A stretch of 35,644 nucleotides of DNA from Acidobacteriaceae bacterium (GTDB taxonomy: Bacteria > Acidobacteriota > Terriglobia > Terriglobales > Acidobacteriaceae): the NCBI GenBank assembly GCA_003171315.1, contig PMYE01000109.1, positions 1 through 35,644 on the forward strand, read 5' to 3'. How positions within the stretch are numbered: the stretch's first letter is position 1; each line of letters opens with the position of its first letter. Below, one piece after another: positions 1 to 19,539 of this stretch. The notes beneath the pieces were generated by a model that did not search any database, was not told the origin of the DNA, and worked only from the letters and a program-made list of their open reading frames with translations. The translations under genes and the position numbers were made by a program.

Positions 1-1215
1 TACCGAAAATTCAAGTGCGCGGCAAAGCCGCGCCCAAACCCCGCCACACCACGCCTGCAGTCATCCCGAGCGAAGGTCGCCGCGGCGGCCGCAGCCGAGA
101 GCCTGCCCTGAGCGGAGATCGCGAAGCGATCGGAGTCGAATGGGGATCTGCGGTTGCTTTTCGCCCTGTATCAGGGCTTGGCTTCAGCCATGCCGTAACC
201 GCCCACCCATTTTTCAAGAAATAAAGTGCGCGGCAAAGCCGCGTCCAAACCCCGCCTCACCACGCCTGCAGTCATCCTGAGCGAAGTTCGCCTTGGCGGA
301 CGAAGTCGAAGGACCTGCATTTCGGGCTCTTCTCCACCCACAAGAGCTAGTCACGTGATCGCTGCCCATCAACCGCCGCTCTTCCTCCCGGAGGGAGAGC
401 AGAGAATAGCCCAGGGCGTCAGCCCTGGGAACCGCGCCGTTCTTACCGAAAAATAAAGTGCGCGGCAAAGCCGCGCCCAAACCTCGCCGTTCGTCCCGCC
501 CTGGTGCCGCTTGGGTGGGATCACGGCGGAGGGAGCGCGGGGCTTCAGCCCCACGAATCCCCGGCCACCCATTCTTCAAGAAATAAAGTGCGCGGCGAAG
601 CCGCGCCCAAACCCCGCCTCACCACGCCTGCAGTCATCCTGAGCGGAGTCCGCCGTGGCGGACGAAGTCGAAGGACCTGCATTTCGGGCTCTTCCCCACC
701 CACAAGAGCTAGTCACGTGATCGCGGCCCATCAACCGCCGCTCTTCCTCCCGGAGGGAGAGCAGAGAATAGCCCAGGGCGTCAGCCCTGGGAACCGCGCC
801 GTTCTTACCGAAAATTCAAGTGCGCGGCGAAGCCGCGCTCAAACCCACGCCTCACCACGCCTGCAGTCATCCTGAGCGAAGTTCGCCGTGGCGGACGAAG
901 TCGAAGGATCTGCGGTTGCTTTTCGTCTTGTATCAGGCCGTGGCTTCAGCCATGCCGTACCGCCCACCCATTTTTCAAGAAATAAAGTACGCGGCAAGGC
1001 CGCGCTGAGCTAAGCGCCGAAACTCTTCTTCGTTTCCCCCACTCCCGGAGGGAGAGCAGAGAATAGCCCAGGGCGTCAGCCCTGGGAACCGCGCCGTTCT
1101 TACCGAAAAATAAAGGTCGCGGCGAAGCCGCGCCCAAACCCACGCCTCACCAATGCGCTGTCATCCTGAGCGGACGCAGGGAGTCGAAGGATCTGCGGTT
1201 GCCTTTCGCCTTATA
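1..1215. repeat. Modular extragenic repeat array (mosaic of at least four recurrent modules, seven GCGCGGC-NNN-GCCGCGC-type hairpins)
   Basis: Hairpin module GCGCGGC-(A/G)AA-GCCGCGC at about 17-33, 228-244, 460-476, 600-616, 822-838, 990-1005 (degenerate) and 1118-1132. 'GTCATCCTGAGCGAAGTTCGCCGTGGCGGACGAAGTCGAAGGA' module recurs at about 60, 271, 635, 867, 1160. 'CTCCCGGAGGGAGAGCAGAGAATAGCCCAGGGCGTCAGCCCTGGGAACCGCGCCGTTCTTACCGAAAA' recurs at about 385, 749, 1044. Confidence 0.9.
222..817. repeat. Near-identical ~230-bp direct repeat (copies about 222-454 and 594-815)
   Basis: Both copies read ATAAAGTGCGCGGC...CACCACGCCTGCAGTCATCCTGAGCG...GACCTGCATTTCGGGCTCTTC(T/C)CCACCCACAAGAGCTAGTCACGTGATCGC...TTCTTACCGAAAA with few differences. 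Confidence 0.9.
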
Positions 1216-5430: not shown

Positions 5431-5521
5431 ATCCCTGCTCCCTATTCCCTACTCCCTATTCCCTACTCCCTACTCCCTGTTCCCTGTTCCCTACTCCCTA
5501 CTCCCTACTCCCTATTCCCTG
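5431..5521. repeat. Heptanucleotide tandem repeat (YTCCCTR, ~13 units)
   Basis: Units ctcccta/ttcccta/ctccctg/ttccctg in exact 7-bp register from 5431 to 5521; minus strand reads (YAGGGAR)n. Confidence 0.95.
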
Positions 5522-5683: not shown

Positions 5684-5712
5684 TTGGCGAAAAGTTAGAA
5701 CAGGGATACTAT
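5684..5712 (+). promoter_or_regulatory. Putative sigma70-type promoter of the mraZ operon
   Basis: TTGGCG (5684-5689), 17-nt spacer, TACTAT (5707-5712), directly upstream of the TGGRR repeats and mraZ. Confidence 0.55.
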
Positions 5713-5723
5713 CGACCGAGAGG

Positions 5724-5758
5724 TGGGAATTACTGGAGTTTAGTGGAGTTCCTTGGAG
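5724..5758 (+). promoter_or_regulatory. Putative MraZ operator: four TGGRR boxes with exact 10-bp period
   Basis: TGGGA 5724, TGGAG 5734, TGGAG 5744, TGGAG 5754, each with 5-nt spacers; resembles the TGGGN-N5 boxes known for E. coli MraZ. Confidence 0.75.
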
Positions 5759-5932
5759 CCACTCAACAGCTTTCATCTCAAGTTTACTCCGGTTTCCTCC
5801 TTGGCAATGGGCTTCCGGGCGCCAAACCGGCTGGGGAACCAGCCTGGCTAACCCGGACGGAGCCCGAGTGGCAAGTGGGTCGGGCGCGGCGTGGACAGAG
5901 GATCCCGGCGCGGCAGCAGGAAAGGCTGGCAG

Positions 5933-6388
5933 ATGTTTCGCGGCAACCATCCGGCGAAGGTCGATGAAAAGGGACGGCTTAAGCTTCCGGCTGCCTTCAA
6001 GCAGCTCCTCGATGCTCAGCACGTCGCCCAGTTCTACATCACCTCCGTGGATGGCAAAAGCGCCGAAATCTGGCCTCTGGCCGAGTGGGAAAGGCAGGAG
6101 AATCTTCTGGCCGAGTCCAGCACCATGGACGACGCCGTAGCCAAGTATTTAAACCTGACCAGCTATTACGGTCAGCAGGTGGAAATGGACACCCAGTCGC
6201 GCGTTCTCCTCCCCCAGATTCTCCGCGCGGCAGCCCGGCTCGATGCCGAGGTCGCTGTCATGGGCAAAATCAACCACCTGCAAGTGCACAATCTTGCCCT
6301 CTTCGAGGAGTCACTGCCCGCCAACGCACTGACCCCCGACGATCGCAAGGCGGTGGCGGCGCTGTTGAGCCGCCGGAGCAGTTTGTAA
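5933..6388 (+). CDS. mraZ: Transcriptional regulator MraZ
   Basis: Protein from 'MFRGNHPAKVDEKGRLKLPAAFKQLL' matches the conserved MraZ N-terminus; the ORF-track start at 5891 is 14 codons upstream, and 5933 is preferred. Confidence 0.93.
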   Translation: MFRGNHPAKVDEKGRLKLPAAFKQLLDAQHVAQFYITSVDGKSAEIWPLAEWERQENLLAESSTMDDAVAKYLNLTSYYGQQVEMDTQSRVLLPQILRAAARLDAEVAVMGKINHLQVHNLALFEESLPANALTPDDRKAVAALLSRRSSL

Positions 6389-6407: not shown

Positions 6408-7301
6408 ATGTCGCAGCCGCAAGTACGCCATGTGCCGGTTCTTTTTCAGGAAGCTTTGGATTTTCTCCGCGTGCGGCCCGGCGCAACCATTGTCGACTGC
6501 ACGCTGGGCCTGGCGGGACACGCGGAAGGCATCGTCAGGCAACTGGGATGCGTGGGGCACCTGATCGGATTTGACCGCGATCCCGAGGCGCTCGAATTGG
6601 CACGAGCCCGGCTCGTAAAGGTTTGCGAAGAGCTGGGCAGCCAGGCGCCGAAAGTGACTTTGATCGGCGAAGCCTTTAGCCGCATCGCCGAGCACGTAGC
6701 GCCGGTTTCGACGGATGGGTTGCTCGCCGACTTCGGCGTGAGCAGCCTGCAATTCGACGAGGCGCGCAGAGGGTTTAGTTTTCAGGCGGACGGGCCGCTG
6801 GATATGCGAATGGATACGCGATCCGGCCCAACTGCCGAACAAGTGGTGAATGAGACGAGTGAGCGCGAGCTGGCAAATCTCATTTACGAATACGGTGAGG
6901 AAAGGAGGTCGCGGACAGTCGCCAGAGCCATTGTGCGGGGGCGGCCGATTACTACCACCGGGCAGCTTGCACGGATCGTAGCATCGACCGTCCCGCCAAT
7001 GAAACATATTCACCCGGCTACCAGAACTTTTCAGGCGCTGCGTATCTTCGTCAATCAGGAATTGAACGAAATCCGGGCTTTGCTTGAGGCCGCACCACAC
7101 TTGCTTAAGCCCTCCGCACGGCTCGTCGTTATCAGCTTTCATTCTCTTGAAGATCGCATTGCGAAAGACAGCATCCGGGAGGGCGCGCAGCGGGGAATCT
7201 GGAAGGTTTTGACCAGAAAGCCCGTAACTGCAGGCGAAGTAGAGATCCACCGTAACCCGCGTTCGCGCAGCGCAAAGCTCAGAGCCGCGGAACGGCAATA
7301 A
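6408..7301 (+). CDS. rsmH: 16S rRNA (cytosine(1402)-N(4))-methyltransferase RsmH
   Basis: 'HVPVLFQEALDFL...IVDCTLGLAGHAEGIV...LIGFDRDPEAL...ISFHSLEDRIAK'; located directly after mraZ. Confidence 0.96.
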   Translation: MSQPQVRHVPVLFQEALDFLRVRPGATIVDCTLGLAGHAEGIVRQLGCVGHLIGFDRDPEALELARARLVKVCEELGSQAPKVTLIGEAFSRIAEHVAPVSTDGLLADFGVSSLQFDEARRGFSFQADGPLDMRMDTRSGPTAEQVVNETSERELANLIYEYGEERRSRTVARAIVRGRPITTTGQLARIVASTVPPMKHIHPATRTFQALRIFVNQELNEIRALLEAAPHLLKPSARLVVISFHSLEDRIAKDSIREGAQRGIWKVLTRKPVTAGEVEIHRNPRSRSAKLRAAERQ

Positions 7302-7324: not shown

Positions 7325-7831
7325 ATGGCGGCATGTGCAACAACTTATTTCGAGACCGGCCGCGGCTGGGGCGCGCGGATCGCCGAGCACAACGCCGAAT
7401 TGATGGTGCAGCAAGCGCCGCGCCGCCGCCGCGTGCGCACGCCGGAGTTCTTTTTCGTCAAGCATTTCGACAACTCGCGCCTGGTCAAGGCCTCCGACCC
7501 CGTGCGCGCTCGCGAGATGCGCGTCTTTTCCGTCGCCGTCGCCATGCTATTCTCGCTCATCATGGTCTATGGCCTCCAGCACTTCTACGCCATCGAGAGC
7601 AGCTACCGCGTGGAGAGCGAAAAGCAAACGCTCGATCAAATGCGGGAGGAGAATCGCCAGTTGCGTCTCACCGAGGCTGAACTCACGCAGCCTGGACGCA
7701 TCGATCAGATGGCTCGCCAGCTTGGGCTCGCCGAGCCGCAGCCCGGTCAGGTGGTTCACTCCGATGGCCGTCCCGCCTCCGCCTCTCCCACGCTTGCCCA
7801 GATACCATCTCCGGCACCCACTGCGCAGTAA
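7325..7831 (+). CDS. ftsL: FtsL-like cell division protein
   Basis: Small bitopic protein with TM segment 'VFSVAVAMLFSLIMVYGLQHFY' followed by coiled coil, between rsmH and ftsI. Confidence 0.75.
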   Translation: MAACATTYFETGRGWGARIAEHNAELMVQQAPRRRRVRTPEFFFVKHFDNSRLVKASDPVRAREMRVFSVAVAMLFSLIMVYGLQHFYAIESSYRVESEKQTLDQMREENRQLRLTEAELTQPGRIDQMARQLGLAEPQPGQVVHSDGRPASASPTLAQIPSPAPTAQ

Positions 7832-7855
7832 CCCACCCCACTGGACTCAGTCGAG

Positions 7856-10180
7856 ATGTCGGCAGCCGTCCAAGCCATTCGCAGCCGTTCCCAAACGCCC
7901 AAGGGCGTACCCCTCAAGCGGGCGCGCTTCTTCATCATCTGCCTCTTCTTTATCCTCTGGGTGTGCGCCATCACCGCGCGCCTCTTCTGGCTCCAGATCG
8001 TGCGCCATCAGGACTTCGTCGAGCGCGCTGCAAAGCAGCAGCAGCGCACTTTTGAAGTAGCTCCGCGCCGCGGCATTCTCTATGACCGCAACCTACGCGA
8101 GTTGGCCATGACCGTCCTGGTCGACTCCATCTACGTCGATCCCAGCCAGATCGCCGACAAGCAAGCTGCCGCACGCACGCTTGCCGCGCTCGTCCACACC
8201 GACCCCGAGGATGGACTCACCACCGAAGAGCAGATCGCCGAGCGCCTCAACGGCGGTCACAGCTTTGCCTGGATCGCGCGCCGCGTCACGCCGCGGGTCG
8301 CAGCCAGCGTCAAAGCCCTCAACATGAAGGGCATCTACTTCCAGAAGGAGTTTCAGCGCTTCTATCCCGACAACGAGATCGCCGCTCAGGTGCTGGGTTA
8401 CGTAGGAGTCGACGACAACGGGCTCGGCGGCCTGGAAGATAAATTCGACAGCGATCTCCATGGCCGCCCCGGCCTCATGGACACGGCCATGGATGCGCAC
8501 CGCAAGGTTCTCGGCTCAAGCGAGCACGAACCCGAACCAGGCCGCAACCTGGTTGTCACCATCGACGAGAACATCCAGTTCCTGGCCGAGCGCGCGCTCG
8601 ATCACGCCATCGAGAAGACGCATGCGGCCAACGGCACGGTGGTGGTGCAGGACGTACACACAGGCCAGATTCTCGCTCTCGCCATCCGTCCCACCTTCAA
8701 CCCCAACCAGTTTCGCCATACCACGCCCGATTTGCTCCGCGACCACGCCGTCAGCGATGTCTACGAACCCGGTTCCACCTTCAAGCTGGTTACCTACTCT
8801 GCCACGATGGACGCGAAGGTCGCCACGCCCGACGACACGATCGACTGCCAGGGCGGCCAGATCGCGCTCGCCGGCCGCGTGATTCACGACGACAAGAGCG
8901 ATCGTGGCCTCGGCAAGGTCACCGTCGCCACGGCCCTCGCCCGCTCCAGTGACGTGGCCGCCGTCAAGCTGGCACTCAAGGTCGGTCCCAACCGCTTCTA
9001 TCAATACATCCGCAGCTTCGGCTTCGGCTCGCGATCGGGCATCGAACTGCCCGGCGAGACGCGCGGCCTGCTCCGTCCCGTCAACCGCTGGAACCCCTCG
9101 TCCATCGGATCCATCGCTATCGGTCAGGAGGTTGCCGTCACCCCGCTGCAACTGGTCACCATGGTTTCCACCATCGCCAACGGCGGCGTATATCTACCCC
9201 CTCACATCCTCTTGTTCGATCAGCCCGCCCCCGCCACGAACACCGACCAAAAGTCCGGCTCGCCGCAGGGGTCGCAAGCGCCGCTTCAGGCTTCCCCGGT
9301 GAAAACAGGCGAAGGTTTGCCCGATCCCCTCCCGCCGGGCGCGCACCGTGTCATCAGCACGCTCGCCGCGGCCGAAATGCGCAAGATGATGGAGGGCGTG
9401 GTGCTCTTCGGCACGGGCAAGGAGGCGCAGCTCGACGGTTACTCCTCAGCAGGCAAAACCGGCACCGCGCAGAAGATCGATCCCGCCACGCACACTTACT
9501 CGAAGACCCTGCACATCGCCTCATTCGCGGGCTTCGCGCCGGTTAACAATCCGGCTATCTCTGTGGCAGTGGTGATTGATTCCCCTATGGGAGCGTACTA
9601 CGGCGCCGAGGTCTCCGCGCCAGTATTCGCCGAGGTGGCGCAACAGGTTCTCGAATATCTGGGTGTTCCACACGACATCGACCTGCGCCCCATGACCACC
9701 GCCTCAAAGAAGCAAGCGCCCATCACTGAAGACGATTCCACTTCGCAGGGCGAAGACGTTCAGGCTCTCTACGAAGCCGCCAACAATCTGCCCAGCGACG
9801 ATCCGCTGCGCACCGCGCCCGCTTCATCGGCCAAAGCAGCCTCAGCCGCTACGCCGCCATCTGTTCAGGCCGCGAACTCATCTGAACATTCCAAAACCAG
9901 CGCTGCCTCCGAGCCCTCCCCCACCGCACCTGCCCAAGCCTCTCCGCAGCCAGCCAGAACCGGCTCTTCATCCCCCGCGGATCGCGTCGTTATCACCAAC
10001 ACCGGCCAACTGCGTGTCCCATCCCTTATCGGCCTTTCGGTGCGCCAAGTCATCGAGCAGGCCGGAAGCGCCGGACTGGAAGCGGAAATCGTCGGCAGCG
10101 GCATAGCCCGGGAGCAGGCGCCTGTCCCCGGCACTGTGGTGCCTGCCGGCACCAAGATCGTTGTCCGCTGCGGTCGCTGA
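7856..10180 (+). CDS. ftsI: Peptidoglycan transpeptidase FtsI/PBP2-like with C-terminal PASTA domain
   Basis: N-terminal TM, PBP dimer domain, 'YEPGSTFKLVTYS' (SxxK), 'SSAGKTGTAQK' (KTG), C-terminal 'RVPSLIGLSVRQVIEQAGSAGLEAEIVGSG...PGTVVPAGTKIVVRC' PASTA. Confidence 0.93.
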   Translation: MSAAVQAIRSRSQTPKGVPLKRARFFIICLFFILWVCAITARLFWLQIVRHQDFVERAAKQQQRTFEVAPRRGILYDRNLRELAMTVLVDSIYVDPSQIADKQAAARTLAALVHTDPEDGLTTEEQIAERLNGGHSFAWIARRVTPRVAASVKALNMKGIYFQKEFQRFYPDNEIAAQVLGYVGVDDNGLGGLEDKFDSDLHGRPGLMDTAMDAHRKVLGSSEHEPEPGRNLVVTIDENIQFLAERALDHAIEKTHAANGTVVVQDVHTGQILALAIRPTFNPNQFRHTTPDLLRDHAVSDVYEPGSTFKLVTYSATMDAKVATPDDTIDCQGGQIALAGRVIHDDKSDRGLGKVTVATALARSSDVAAVKLALKVGPNRFYQYIRSFGFGSRSGIELPGETRGLLRPVNRWNPSSIGSIAIGQEVAVTPLQLVTMVSTIANGGVYLPPHILLFDQPAPATNTDQKSGSPQGSQAPLQASPVKTGEGLPDPLPPGAHRVISTLAAAEMRKMMEGVVLFGTGKEAQLDGYSSAGKTGTAQKIDPATHTYSKTLHIASFAGFAPVNNPAISVAVVIDSPMGAYYGAEVSAPVFAEVAQQVLEYLGVPHDIDLRPMTTASKKQAPITEDDSTSQGEDVQALYEAANNLPSDDPLRTAPASSAKAASAATPPSVQAANSSEHSKTSAASEPSPTAPAQASPQPARTGSSSPADRVVITNTGQLRVPSLIGLSVRQVIEQAGSAGLEAEIVGSGIAREQAPVPGTVVPAGTKIVVRCGR

Positions 10181-10256: not shown

Positions 10257-11411
10257 TCAGTGGCCCTTGACCACCGCCGGGCAGCCTGACGTGTCGATCG
10301 TGTATGTTGCTGTCGACTGGGCGCTGGTGGCTAAGCCGCCGGCCATCGCGATTGCCTTGATCGTTTCGCTCGCCGAAACCGCGATCGCTCCGGCGTAAAC
10401 CGTTGAGCTCGTGGTTGGCATTGTGCCGTCTGTGGTGTAGTAGATGATCGCATCCGTAGTAGCGTCAGTGATGGTTACCGCCTGCGCCGCGCAATAAGTA
10501 CCGGACGCTAGATTGATAACCGGTGTGGCTGGCACGGCTCCGACCCCGTAAACGTACCCGCTTTCGAGGAAATACAGATCCCCTGAAATATAGTCCACGC
10601 CTTCCAGCTCGGTCCCCACCGAGGCCGGCACAATGTAGATCGGGCCGCTGACCGTTCCCGCCGGAGTGACAAGCCACAGGCTCCCAGCGGTCCCGTCCAT
10701 GTCCGTTGAAACCGCGAACTGATTGGCTGCGGCATTCCAACTGATTCCCTGGATCTCTGAAATCGCGCTCGAGAGCGTGATTGTACTGCTATAGGTCATC
10801 GTGCTGCCGGACGGGTTTGTAGTCAGCGCGTTCAGGTCATAATTCCACAACGTCGTATCGCCGTTTTGGTTAGGACAAAAACTCGTCACAACCAATTGAT
10901 TTGAGCCTGGAACCACCGCTACTGCGCTGGCTTCATGTCCATCCGCGGTGATATTGCTCCATGTGACCTGTTGCCCTGTGCGGGCGTCGTACACCGCGAG
11001 CAGCACGGGGGTAAAGCTGCTGCAGCTGCTCCACGCTTCAGCCGACGCATAGATGTACCCGTCGCCGTATTCGATGTCACCCAAATGATCCACTGCTGAA
11101 GGCATGCCGGCAAGCGGGTTGGTATTGCTCCAAAGTACCCGCCATTTCTTGTTATAAGCGGTCAGCACTTCCTGGGAACTTACGTAGACGTTGTCGTCGG
11201 GGCCGGTCGCCACACCTTCCGTGGCTCCCAAATCAGATGAAACGCCAATCCCATCCGGGAATGGAAAATCGTTGGCGCCGCCACGCGTCGAGGTGACAAC
11301 TACTCCTCCGCCGTCGCCAGAATCCGCTTCCCACGCGCATCCGGACAGGGTCCATTGCGCCAGCGACACAAGCACACTGGCGGCTACGACTTTTGCCTTG
11401 CAGGGGACCAT
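10257..11411 (-). CDS. Predicted lipoprotein with C-terminal chitobiase/hexosaminidase-C-like domain
   Basis: Lipobox 'LSGC' after a hydrophobic leader; C-terminal 'IYYTTDGTMPTTSSTVYAGAIAVSASETIKAIAMAGG' typical of CHB_HEX_C_1-type domains. Confidence 0.7.
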   Translation of the reverse strand: MVPCKAKVVAASVLVSLAQWTLSGCAWEADSGDGGGVVVTSTRGGANDFPFPDGIGVSSDLGATEGVATGPDDNVYVSSQEVLTAYNKKWRVLWSNTNPLAGMPSAVDHLGDIEYGDGYIYASAEAWSSCSSFTPVLLAVYDARTGQQVTWSNITADGHEASAVAVVPGSNQLVVTSFCPNQNGDTTLWNYDLNALTTNPSGSTMTYSSTITLSSAISEIQGISWNAAANQFAVSTDMDGTAGSLWLVTPAGTVSGPIYIVPASVGTELEGVDYISGDLYFLESGYVYGVGAVPATPVINLASGTYCAAQAVTITDATTDAIIYYTTDGTMPTTSSTVYAGAIAVSASETIKAIAMAGGLATSAQSTATYTIDTSGCPAVVKGH

Positions 11412-13578: not shown

Positions 13579-14987
13579 ATCTAACGCTTGCCGAGGTTGC
13601 GATGGGCGCCGGAGCAGTGCTCGAGGCGCCGGCCAGTGTGTCCAACGCAGGCGCGCTGGTGGCTACCGGCTATTCCATCGACTCGCGCACCATCGCGCCC
13701 GGCGAGCTGTTCTTCGCCGTCCGCGGCGAGCGCCACGATGGCCATGATTTTGTCTCCGCCGCTCTGGAGCGCGGAGCCCTGGCCGCAGTCGTCGCTCGCG
13801 CGCGCGCCGCTTCCCTGCCCGATGTGGCGCTCGCTCGTCCGCTTCTTATCGCGGAAGACCCGCTCCTGGCCCTGCAAACGCTGGCTTCGCATGTACGCCG
13901 CCAGTGGGGCCGCCGCGTGGTGGCCATCACCGGCTCAGCCGGTAAAACCACCACCAAGGACGCCGCGGCTGCTGCCCTTGGCGCAAAGTTCCGCGTGCTC
14001 AAATCCCAGGGCAATCTGAACAACAACTTTGGCCTGCCCTTGCAACTGCTGCGCCTTATGCCGGAGCACGAATTCGCCGTCGTGGAGATGGGTATGAATC
14101 ACTCCGGAGAGATCGCCGCGCTGGCGCGCATCGCCGCGCCCGACTGGGGCGTCATCACCAACGTCGGCACGGCGCATATCGAGTATTTCCCTGAAGGCCA
14201 GGCGGGAATTGCCCGCGCCAAGTTCGAGCTCATCGCCGCGCTGCCCTCGAGCGGCGTGGCCTTTCTCAATTGCGACGACGCCTATGCCGCGCAGTTTGGC
14301 CGCGGCTTCCCCGGCCGCGTTGTCTACTTCGGCAGCGGTCCCTGCGCCGACCCGCAAATCCTCTCTGCCGTCGAGGATCCGGATGGGCTTCATGTCCGCT
14401 ACCGGGCTGGCCGTCGCGAAGGCATCTTCACGCTACATCTGCTTGGCGCGCACAATGCGTCCAACGCCATCGCCGGTCTCGCCGTTGCGCTGGAGGCGGG
14501 CGTCGAACCCGATGCCGCCATAGCCGCCATCTCTGCGCTCACTGCCGGCGACAAGCGTGGCCAGGTCATCGAAATCGCCGGCGTAACCATCCTGAACGAC
14601 AGCTATAACTCCAACCCCGAAGCGCTGCGTTCCATGATCCGCACCTTGGCCGCGCGCCCCGCAAAAGGCCGCCGCATCCTCGTGGCCGGTGAAATGCTCG
14701 AGATGGGCGAGCATGGCCCCGCGCTGCACATTGACTGCGGCCGCGCCGCCGCCGAGGCCGGACTCGATCTCGTGGCCGCCGTTCAAGGCAACGCGGAATA
14801 TCTGGCTACGGCCGCCTGCGCCGGCGGAGTTCCGGCAGTGTTTCTTCGTGACGCCGAAACTGCCGGCCAGTGGCTGGCGCAGAATCTCCGTCCCGGCGAC
14901 GTCGTTCTCGTCAAAGGCTCGCGCGGCGTTCACCTTGAACGCGCCATCGAAGCAGCCGTGAATCAGCTTTCGCCGCCGACTGAATAA
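13575..14987 (+). CDS. murF: UDP-N-acetylmuramoyl-tripeptide--D-alanyl-D-alanine ligase MurF
   Basis: 'AITGSAGKTTTKDAAAAAL', 'NLNNNFGLPLQLLRL', 'EMGMNHSGEIAALARIAAPDWGVITNVGTAHIEYF'; ATGA overlap with murE. Confidence 0.96.
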   Translation: MNLTLAEVAMGAGAVLEAPASVSNAGALVATGYSIDSRTIAPGELFFAVRGERHDGHDFVSAALERGALAAVVARARAASLPDVALARPLLIAEDPLLALQTLASHVRRQWGRRVVAITGSAGKTTTKDAAAAALGAKFRVLKSQGNLNNNFGLPLQLLRLMPEHEFAVVEMGMNHSGEIAALARIAAPDWGVITNVGTAHIEYFPEGQAGIARAKFELIAALPSSGVAFLNCDDAYAAQFGRGFPGRVVYFGSGPCADPQILSAVEDPDGLHVRYRAGRREGIFTLHLLGAHNASNAIAGLAVALEAGVEPDAAIAAISALTAGDKRGQVIEIAGVTILNDSYNSNPEALRSMIRTLAARPAKGRRILVAGEMLEMGEHGPALHIDCGRAAAEAGLDLVAAVQGNAEYLATAACAGGVPAVFLRDAETAGQWLAQNLRPGDVVLVKGSRGVHLERAIEAAVNQLSPPTE

Positions 14988-16527: not shown

Positions 16528-16604
<77 letters not shown>

Positions 16605-17251: not shown

Positions 17252-18016
17252 CTAAGCTCGTTTGCGACGGCTTTGCTTAAGCCTGTAGGAGTCGGCGTTC
17301 ATCTCCAGGATGTGCACGTGGTGGGTGATGCGATCCAGCAGTGCGCCGGTGAGCCGCTCGGAGCCGAAGATCTCAGTCCATTCGTCGAAGGGGAGGTTGC
17401 TGGTGATCATCGTTGAGGAGCGCTCGTAGCGCTGGCTGATGGTCTCGAAGAGCAGCTCGGCGCCGGTCTTCGATAGCGGCACATAGCCCAGTTCGTCGAT
17501 GATCAGCAGCTCATAGGCTGTCAGCTGTTTTTGGAAGCGTCGCAGATACTTCTCGTCGCGAGCCTCGATCAGCTCGCCGACCAGAGCGGCGGCGGTGATG
17601 AAGCGGACGCGGTGGCCGCGCTGACAAGCCGCCAGACCAAGCGCCAGGGCGATGTGGGTTTTCCCGGTGCCGCTGTTACCGAGCAGCAGGGCGTTCTCCT
17701 TGCGGCCGAGGTACTCGCAACGCGCCAGTTCGAGGACCAGGGACTTGTTGAGCGCGGGGATGGCGAGGAAGTCGAAGCTGTCCAGGCTCTTCACCACGGG
17801 GAACCTGGCCTGTCGGATGCGGCGCTCGGTGGCGCGGCGATCGCGGTCGAGCAACTCCAGTTCGGTCAGCCGCAGCAGATAGTGCGGGAAGTTGGCCTTT
17901 TCTTGGGCGCAGGTGCGGGCCAGCTTGTCGTACTCGCGCAGCATGGTGGGTAGCCGCAGAGCCTTCAGGTGATGCTCCAGCAGGACCTGCGGCGTATCGG
18001 GAGTCGCTGTGCTCAT
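17252..18016 (-). CDS. istB: IS21-family helper ATPase IstB
   Basis: 'LLLGNSGTGKTHIALALGLAACQRGHRVRF', 'LLIIDELGYVPLSKTGAELLFETISQRYERSSTMITSNLPFDEWTEIFG'. Confidence 0.95.
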   Translation of the reverse strand: MSTATPDTPQVLLEHHLKALRLPTMLREYDKLARTCAQEKANFPHYLLRLTELELLDRDRRATERRIRQARFPVVKSLDSFDFLAIPALNKSLVLELARCEYLGRKENALLLGNSGTGKTHIALALGLAACQRGHRVRFITAAALVGELIEARDEKYLRRFQKQLTAYELLIIDELGYVPLSKTGAELLFETISQRYERSSTMITSNLPFDEWTEIFGSERLTGALLDRITHHVHILEMNADSYRLKQSRRKRA

Positions 18017-19539
18017 AGCGTCGCCTCCAGGGTTGGGAGTTCAGCGGCAGATGTGTACAGCAGGCTCATGTAGTCTGCGGCGCGTGTGGTGCGCACCTGG
18101 GCCAGGGGCAGGTGCGGCCAGTTGGCCATATCCAGCCGCGGCGGCCTGCGTTCGATGCGGCAGAGCACCAGATGGCGCACGGCATCGAAGCTGAGCGTGT
18201 TCAGCGCCAGCGCCTGCTCGATGGCGGCGGTGACCTCGGCAAGTGGAAAGGTCTCCAGAAGCCGCAGCACCTGGATGTACTCGCGGGCAGCGTGCTTGCG
18301 CAACCGTGCTTCCAGCAGCCGACGGAGTTGAGCAAAGCACTCAGGCAGTTCCCAGCCTGTGAGCGGCGCGGCCTGGTCCAGAGCGCGGCTCTTGTGCTCG
18401 AGTAGGGCAAGATAGTGCAGCGGGTCGTAGACCGTGGCTTCGCGTTCGTAGCTGCGTTGGTGCTCGGCGATGACTTCACTGCCGGAGACGATCACGATGC
18501 GGTGAACGTAGGCCTTGACCAGCACCTGGCGATGGCCGTACTCGGTGGGAACCGAGTAATCGTTGGTGCGGTAGCGAACCAGCGAGATCGAACTGACTCG
18601 AACCGTGGTCTTGTCACAGGCCTCGAAGCGAGCCGCCGGAAGCGGCAGAAGCACAGCACGGTCGCGTTCGAAGCGCTCGCCGATCGTCTCCGTGTGGCCA
18701 CGCAGGCGCTGTGCGCGGCGAGCCATCGAGTCGCGCACGAACTGCTCGTTGAGCGCCTCCCAGCTTGCTGCGCGGGGAATCGGCACCATGAAGTTGCGCC
18801 GCGCGTAGCCGACCATGTTCTCCACCTTGCCCTTGTCGTTGCCCTTGGCAGGCCGGCCGAACTTCTCGGCGAACAGGTAGTGGCTCTGCAACTCGGAGAA
18901 GGCTCGCGTCTTCTGCCGCTCCCCATCGCCGAGGATCCTGGCTACGGCTAGTGCCGTGTTGTCGTAGAGGATCCGCCTCGGAACTCCGCCGAAGTACGCG
19001 AAGGCGCGCACATGGCCTTCCAGGAAGGCCTCCGTGGTCTCGGCCGGAAAGGCCTGTACGAAGCAGTCGTCGGAGTGCGGCAGATCGAAGGCCATGAAGT
19101 GCGCCGTTTGCTCCGCGCCGGCAATGACCACTTGCGCTTGGCCGAAATCCGCCTGCGCCTCGCCCGGCGCGTGGCTCAGCGGCACGAACATCTCCTGGCT
19201 GCCGAGCTTCGCCTGCCGCACGTAATCCTTCACAATGGTGTAGCCGCCGCTATAACTGTGCTCAACGCGCAGCCGCTCGAAAATGCGCTTGGCCGTGTGC
19301 CGCTGCTTCCGCGGCCGCTCCTTGTCCTGTTCCAGAATGGCGTCGATCACGCCCAGCCAGGGGCCCAGCTTGGGACGCCGGATCGGCTTCTGCCGCCGAT
19401 ACCCCGGCGGCAACGAGTACTCCAGCATCTTCCTCACTGTTTTCCGCGCCAGCCCGAACTCCCGGGCTACCGCACGCCGGCTCTTGCCCTCGACCAGAAC
19501 CGCCCGCCGCACACGCGCATACACGTCCACGTCGTACAT
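18013..19539 (-). CDS. istA: IS21-family transposase IstA
   Basis: N-terminal HTH 'GKSRRAVAREFGLARKTVRKML', DDE-type core 'PGEAQADFGQAQVVIAG...FVQAFPAETTEAFLEGHVRAFAYFGGVPRRILYDN', 'GNDKGKVENMVGYARRNFMVP'. Confidence 0.95.
   Translation of the reverse strand: MYDVDVYARVRRAVLVEGKSRRAVAREFGLARKTVRKMLEYSLPPGYRRQKPIRRPKLGPWLGVIDAILEQDKERPRKQRHTAKRIFERLRVEHSYSGGYTIVKDYVRQAKLGSQEMFVPLSHAPGEAQADFGQAQVVIAGAEQTAHFMAFDLPHSDDCFVQAFPAETTEAFLEGHVRAFAYFGGVPRRILYDNTALAVARILGDGERQKTRAFSELQSHYLFAEKFGRPAKGNDKGKVENMVGYARRNFMVPIPRAASWEALNEQFVRDSMARRAQRLRGHTETIGERFERDRAVLLPLPAARFEACDKTTVRVSSISLVRYRTNDYSVPTEYGHRQVLVKAYVHRIVIVSGSEVIAEHQRSYEREATVYDPLHYLALLEHKSRALDQAAPLTGWELPECFAQLRRLLEARLRKHAAREYIQVLRLLETFPLAEVTAAIEQALALNTLSFDAVRHLVLCRIERRPPRLDMANWPHLPLAQVRTTRAADYMSLLYTSAAELPTLEATL

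What the first reader, a model, noticed from the sequence alone, without database searches (positions are those of the whole stretch)
5684..5758. Putative promoter plus four phased MraZ boxes
TTGGCG-N17-TACTAT is followed by TGGGA-N5-TGGAG-N5-TGGAG-N5-TGGAG at 5724/5734/5744/5754, an exact 10-bp helical period, about 175 bp before mraZ. E. coli MraZ binds TGGGN repeats with 5-nt spacers at its own promoter. Here there are four boxes, mostly TGGAG, suggesting a lineage-specific operator variant and autoregulation.
Basis: partly seen in the sequence, partly recalled or inferred. Interest (0 to 1): 0.65.

Follow-up and report, generated by a model that had tools for sequence, protein, structure and literature searches.

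The report
MraZ self-repression operator in Acidobacteriota
The DNA just in front of this soil bacterium's cell-division gene cluster carries four evenly spaced short repeats, the standard docking site through which the cluster's own first protein, MraZ, turns the cluster down; it is a well-conserved, ordinary example of a known switch.

Summary
Four TGG cores at 10-bp period occur once in the 3.29-Mb genome, exactly here. In 152 non-redundant mraZ upstream regions (Acidobacteriota plus E. coli), 114 have at least three of four TGG cores at period 10. Every other period from 6 to 15 gives 0-4, and shuffles give 0.2. The array starts close behind the -10 hexamer in nearly all, as in E. coli. 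The best reading is the MraZ operator of the dcw cluster, overlapping the transcription start and used for autorepression; binding and repression are inferred, not shown. TGGAG is a genus flavour (57% AG at box positions 4-5), but these positions vary everywhere, and four boxes are already described in Burkholderia cenocepacia. So this is a new member of a known kind, of low interest. Two side leads deserve more attention: a conserved mraZ leader motif pair in this genus, and a leader ORF in sister genera whose frame relative to mraZ is kept.

The parts
5684..5689 (+). -35 element TTGGCG of the mraZ/dcw promoter
   Evidence: Sequence; TTGGCG is the commonest -35 (19 of 39) in genus-like relatives at the same distance
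5707..5712 (+). -10 element TACTAT, 17-nt spacer; predicted start near 5719 (inference)
   Evidence: Sequence; TACTAT is the commonest -10 (21 of 39) in genus-like relatives, usually followed by CG
5724..5728 (+). MraZ box 1, TGGGA
5734..5738 (+). MraZ box 2, TGGAG
5744..5748 (+). MraZ box 3, TGGAG
5754..5758 (+). MraZ box 4, TGGAG
5780..5844 (+). Conserved leader motif pair AAGTTTACTCC ... GGGGAACCAGCC, about 54 nt start to start; function unknown, possibly a second control element
   Evidence: Conserved in 51 genus-like leaders; strict pattern found once in the own genome; no Rfam family and no consensus RNA fold
5933..6388 (+). mraZ, the presumed autoregulator, with two D-x-x-x-R motifs (DEKGR, DTQSR)
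   Evidence: PF02381 E 2.2e-18; D11, R15, D86 and R90 invariant in alignment A1; solved MraZ relatives
6408..7301 (+). rsmH (mraW), presumed co-regulated
   Evidence: PF01795 E 2e-95
7325..10180 (+). ftsL-like gene (7325-7831) and ftsI/PBP (7856-10180), presumed co-regulated
   Evidence: FtsL/DivIC below cut-off, transpeptidase PF00905 E 5e-73

Best explanation
This is the operator and promoter of the dcw (division and cell wall) cluster. RNA polymerase starts near 5719 from TTGGCG-N17-TACTAT. MraZ, made from the first gene of the transcript, is an oligomer that docks on the four TGG boxes. The boxes lie 10 bp apart, so all face the same side of the helix, and cover about +5 to +40. Bound MraZ blocks promoter escape or polymerase binding and so lowers expression of mraZ, rsmH, ftsL and ftsI (negative feedback). 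Shown here: the sequence, its uniqueness in the genome, its conservation and exact phasing, and its fixed relation to the promoter. Inferred from established work on other species: MraZ binding, the oligomer, and the sign of regulation.
For: Exact boxes; only 4xTGG period-10 site in the genome; 114 of 152 mraZ upstream regions with the array against 0-4 for other periods and 0.2 for shuffles; boxes kept while spacers change, for example L090 against the window; array beginning 1 nt (sister lineage) to 11 nt (window) after the -10, 8 nt in E. coli K-12; the same layout in E. coli, AGTGGGA AATTGTGGGG CAAAGTGGGA; MraZ family and conserved D-x-x-x-R motifs; B. cenocepacia MraZ binds a fragment with four 7-nt repeats and 3-nt spacers just after the -10 (PMC7761207); Mollicutes MraZ site is direct repeats of AAAGTG[T/G], in M. 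genitalium only at mraZ (PMC8475190).
Against: No binding, footprint or expression data for any Acidobacteriota MraZ was found. 38 of 152 relatives do not reach three exact TGG boxes, though many of these have GGG or AGG in one box. In Mollicutes, MraZ loss or excess has effects that are not simple repression, so the sign of regulation in this phylum is not certain.
Confidence: 0.93

Rival explanations
1. The boxes act in the RNA: GGA motifs in the 5' leader bind CsrA/RsmA-type proteins.
For: Three boxes read TGGAG and one TGGGA, so GGA is repeated near the 5' end of the predicted transcript.
Against: 74 of 113 arrays with three or more boxes have at most one box reading GGA. In the sister lineage the first box lies 1 nt after the -10, so it is not transcribed. 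A strict 10-bp DNA period is not needed for RNA binding.
Confidence: 0.02
2. The G-rich strand folds into a G-quadruplex that governs mraZ transcription, as reported for S. aureus.
For: A G4 just downstream of the S. aureus mraZ promoter affects reporter expression with a ligand (PMC11796246); the window array has four GG tracts.
Against: Here the tracts are mostly GG with loops of 7-8 nt, a weak two-layer G4 by general knowledge; exact 10-bp period in 114 of 152 relatives is not a G4 requirement. The S. aureus G-rich stretch may itself be MraZ boxes (inference).
Confidence: 0.02
3. The array is an operator, but for another regulator than MraZ.
For: No binding test exists; direct repeats are used by several regulators, and MtrA binds the mraZ promoter in Dietzia (PMC9602371).
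Against: Match to MraZ box core, spacing and place in E. coli, Burkholderia and Mollicutes; the array stays with mraZ across the phylum.
Confidence: 0.03

Closest known systems
Escherichia coli MraZ boxes at Pmra (Eraso et al. 2014)
   Same: Direct repeats with TGG core at 10-bp period just after the -10 and before mraZ; read here from NC_000913.3
   Different: E. coli boxes read TGGG, three to four of them, -35 is TTGACA, and they lie 43 nt before mraZ; the window reads mostly TGGAG, -35 TTGGCG, with a leader of about 210 nt
Burkholderia cenocepacia PmraBc MraZ site (PMC7761207)
   Same: Four repeats at 10-bp period (7 nt plus 3-nt spacer), after the -10 and over the start site; MraZ binding shown by gel shift
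   Different: Box sequence not compared here; different phylum
Mollicutes MraZ site AAAGTG[T/G] repeats (Fisunov et al. 2016, as cited in PMC8475190)
   Same: Phased direct repeats with GTG core, single genomic site at mraZ; relatives of the window also show AAG before TGG
   Different: Window boxes 2 and 4 lack the G before TGG

Membership tests
MraZ-box operator | Direct repeats with a (G)TGG core | tested here: met
   Four TGG cores, two preceded by G
MraZ-box operator | 10-bp centre spacing | tested here: met
   5724, 5734, 5744, 5754; only period 10 is enriched in relatives
MraZ-box operator | Place directly downstream of the -10 of the promoter of mraZ | tested here: met
   11 nt after TACTAT; 8 in E. 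coli. Transcription start itself not measured
MraZ-box operator | Conserved in front of orthologous mraZ | tested here: met
   114 of 152 upstream regions
MraZ-box operator | Bound by MraZ; box mutations abolish binding and regulation | not testable with these tools
   Needs gel shift, footprint and reporter
MraZ protein family (PF02381) | Two MraZ/AbrB-type domains, each with D-x-x-x-R | tested here: met
   PF02381 over cut-off with two stretches; DEKGR and DTQSR, D and R invariant

The most novel reading that the evidence does not exclude
In this genus, dcw control has a second layer: the 174-nt leader between the MraZ boxes and mraZ holds a conserved, mraZ-specific element (AAGTTTACTCC and GGGGAACCAGCC about 54 nt apart) that acts on elongation or translation, or binds another regulator, together with MraZ.
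Probability: 0.3. Interest if true: 0.4.

Novelty: new member of a known kind. Interest (0 to 1): 0.17.

Why it matters
It shows that the MraZ operator, known from a few model bacteria, is kept with exact 10-bp phasing across Acidobacteriota, a phylum in which no MraZ regulation paper was found in the held library. The survey separates what is fixed (TGG core, period 10, place at the promoter) from what drifts between lineages (box positions 4-5, box number 3-4, leader length), which is useful for predicting MraZ sites elsewhere. It does not change the understanding of the mechanism.

Tried and rejected
Rfam search of the leader: no family. Single-strand fold of 5719-5950: no more stable than shuffles, z 0.12. 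RNAalifold on 51 leader cores: no consensus structure; no frame free of stops, so no leader peptide in this genus. Search for further MraZ targets: three other three-box TGGR sites in the genome, all inside open frames of 180-490 codons and about the number expected by my rough chance estimate, so no regulon beyond dcw is claimed. Covariation of MraZ residues with box positions 4-5: the top columns do not lie in the DNA-binding motifs and look like phylogeny. A strict helical register of the array to the -10 across the phylum: fixed at 1 nt in the sister lineage, but it spreads elsewhere (E. coli 8), so not claimed.

Full report
WHAT IS THERE. The mraZ ATG is at 5933. The protein is MraZ (PF02381, E 2.2e-18) and is followed by rsmH, an ftsL-like gene, ftsI, murE and murF. 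Acido-Lenti-1 RNAs in the window and the named nearest relatives, Acidobacteriaceae and Terracidiphilus, place it in Acidobacteriota, Terriglobia.

CHANCE. The three-box pattern TGGR-N6 occurs in the window only in this array, with 0.04 expected. Four TGG at period 10 occur once in the window, 0.02 expected, and once in the 3.29-Mb genome on either strand, at this place. Since four TGG at fixed spacing would be expected a few tenths of a time in a genome of this size (my estimate), uniqueness alone is modest evidence; its position at the mraZ promoter and its conservation are what decide.

CONSERVATION. mraZ was found in 56 of 60 near relatives and 265 of 297 genomes of the phylum. I took upstream regions from these, from 80 named loci and from E. 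coli K-12, 152 after removal of duplicates. 114 have at least three of four TGG cores at period 10, 100 have three in a row; at any other period from 6 to 15 the counts are 0-4, and shuffles give 0.2. Many of these sequences are related, so they are not 152 independent cases, but they include mraZ genes down to about 35% identity. Between close relatives the boxes stay while the spacers change (window against L090). In the unit, TGG is fixed (partly by selection of units), A-A-G is preferred before it, and positions 4-5 differ by lineage: AG in 57% of boxes in the window's genus-like group, TA, TC or AC in the Sulfotelmatobacter-like sister group, GA in E. coli and several other Acidobacteriota.

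PROMOTER. The hexamers are conserved in the genus: TTGGCG is the commonest -35 and TACTAT the commonest -10, although a strict consensus scan misses them. The sister lineage has TTGACA and TAAGAT or TAGGAT with the first box 1 nt after the -10; the window has 11 nt and E. coli 8 nt. So the array always covers the start region. That is the place where a bound oligomer would hinder polymerase binding or escape.

MECHANISM. The best reading is negative feedback: MraZ from the first gene of the transcript binds the phased boxes on one face of the helix and lowers dcw transcription. The steps of binding, oligomer and repression are taken from work on E. coli (Eraso 2014, known to me and cited in PMC8475190 and PMC5138195), B. 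cenocepacia (four 7-nt repeats with 3-nt spacers after the -10, gel shift; PMC7761207) and Mollicutes (AAAGTG[T/G] repeats; PMC8475190). They are not shown for this phylum. Solved MraZ structures match the window protein by sequence at E about 5e-7.

RIVALS. GGA-binding RNA regulators are unlikely: 74 of 113 good arrays have at most one GGA box and the first box is not transcribed in the sister lineage. A G-quadruplex, as reported for S. aureus (PMC11796246), does not require the 10-bp period. Another regulator on the same boxes cannot be excluded without a binding test but has no positive support.

LINEAGE VARIANT? TGGAG is a real preference of this genus, but it lies in positions that drift freely elsewhere. 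I found no sign of matching change in the DNA-binding motifs of MraZ. Divergent MraZ proteins with an N-terminal extension in some genomes of the same genus have TGGGC-type boxes (L048-L054), a further case of drift in these positions.

SIDE LEADS. (1) The leader of the window's genus keeps two motifs, AAGTTTACTCC and GGGGAACCAGCC, about 54 nt apart; a strict version of the pair occurs once in the own genome, here, and in one of 25 other genus members, also before mraZ. It has no consensus RNA fold and no Rfam family. (2) In the sister lineage the leader has an ORF starting GTG behind a GAGG stretch. Its distance to the mraZ ATG ranges from 88 to 223 nt, with about 17 different lengths, yet in 29 of 30 loci is 1 modulo 3, and the frame stays open far into mraZ. 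Codon statistics do not show clear constraint, so whether it is translated is open.

VERDICT. Observation confirmed, interpretation supported, ordinary in kind.

Noticed in passing
window 5780-5844; L002-L027, L090-L128: Two conserved leader motifs, AAGTTTACTCC and GGGGAACCAGCC about 54 nt apart, between the MraZ boxes and mraZ in the whole genus-like group; no RNA fold, no Rfam family, no peptide.
   Followed up: partly
L129-L169, upstream of mraZ (Sulfotelmatobacter-like loci): Leader ORF (GTG start after GAGG, hydrophobic TSLVAVVAA stretch) whose distance to mraZ is 1 modulo 3 in 29 of 30 loci with lengths of 88-223 nt, and which stays open in the alternative frame deep into mraZ. Overlapping gene, frameshift or coincidence of codon use is open.
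   Followed up: partly
L048, L049, L051-L054 (G022, G014, G015, G007, G004, G010): Genomes of the same genus carry a divergent MraZ (35-40% identity) with an N-terminal extension of about 35-40 residues and TGGGC-type boxes; G010 holds both types, which may be a contaminated bin.
   Followed up: partly
window 5432-5520: Tandem heptamer array, 12.7 copies of TCCCTAC, in the intergenic region upstream of the dcw promoter.
   Followed up: no
window 10257-11411 (-): Opposite-strand gene with chitobiase C-terminal and Fn3-associated domains between ftsI and murE, and the dcw cluster stops after murF at 14987: the cluster is interrupted and split in this genome.
   Followed up: no
window 384-429, 746-791, 1041-1086 (-): Three copies of the Acido-Lenti-1 RNA motif (RF01687) within 700 bp.
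   Followed up: no
window 17252-19539 (-): IS21-type element (IstB and transposase with Mu C-terminal domain) near a tRNA gene at 16529-16600.
   Followed up: no
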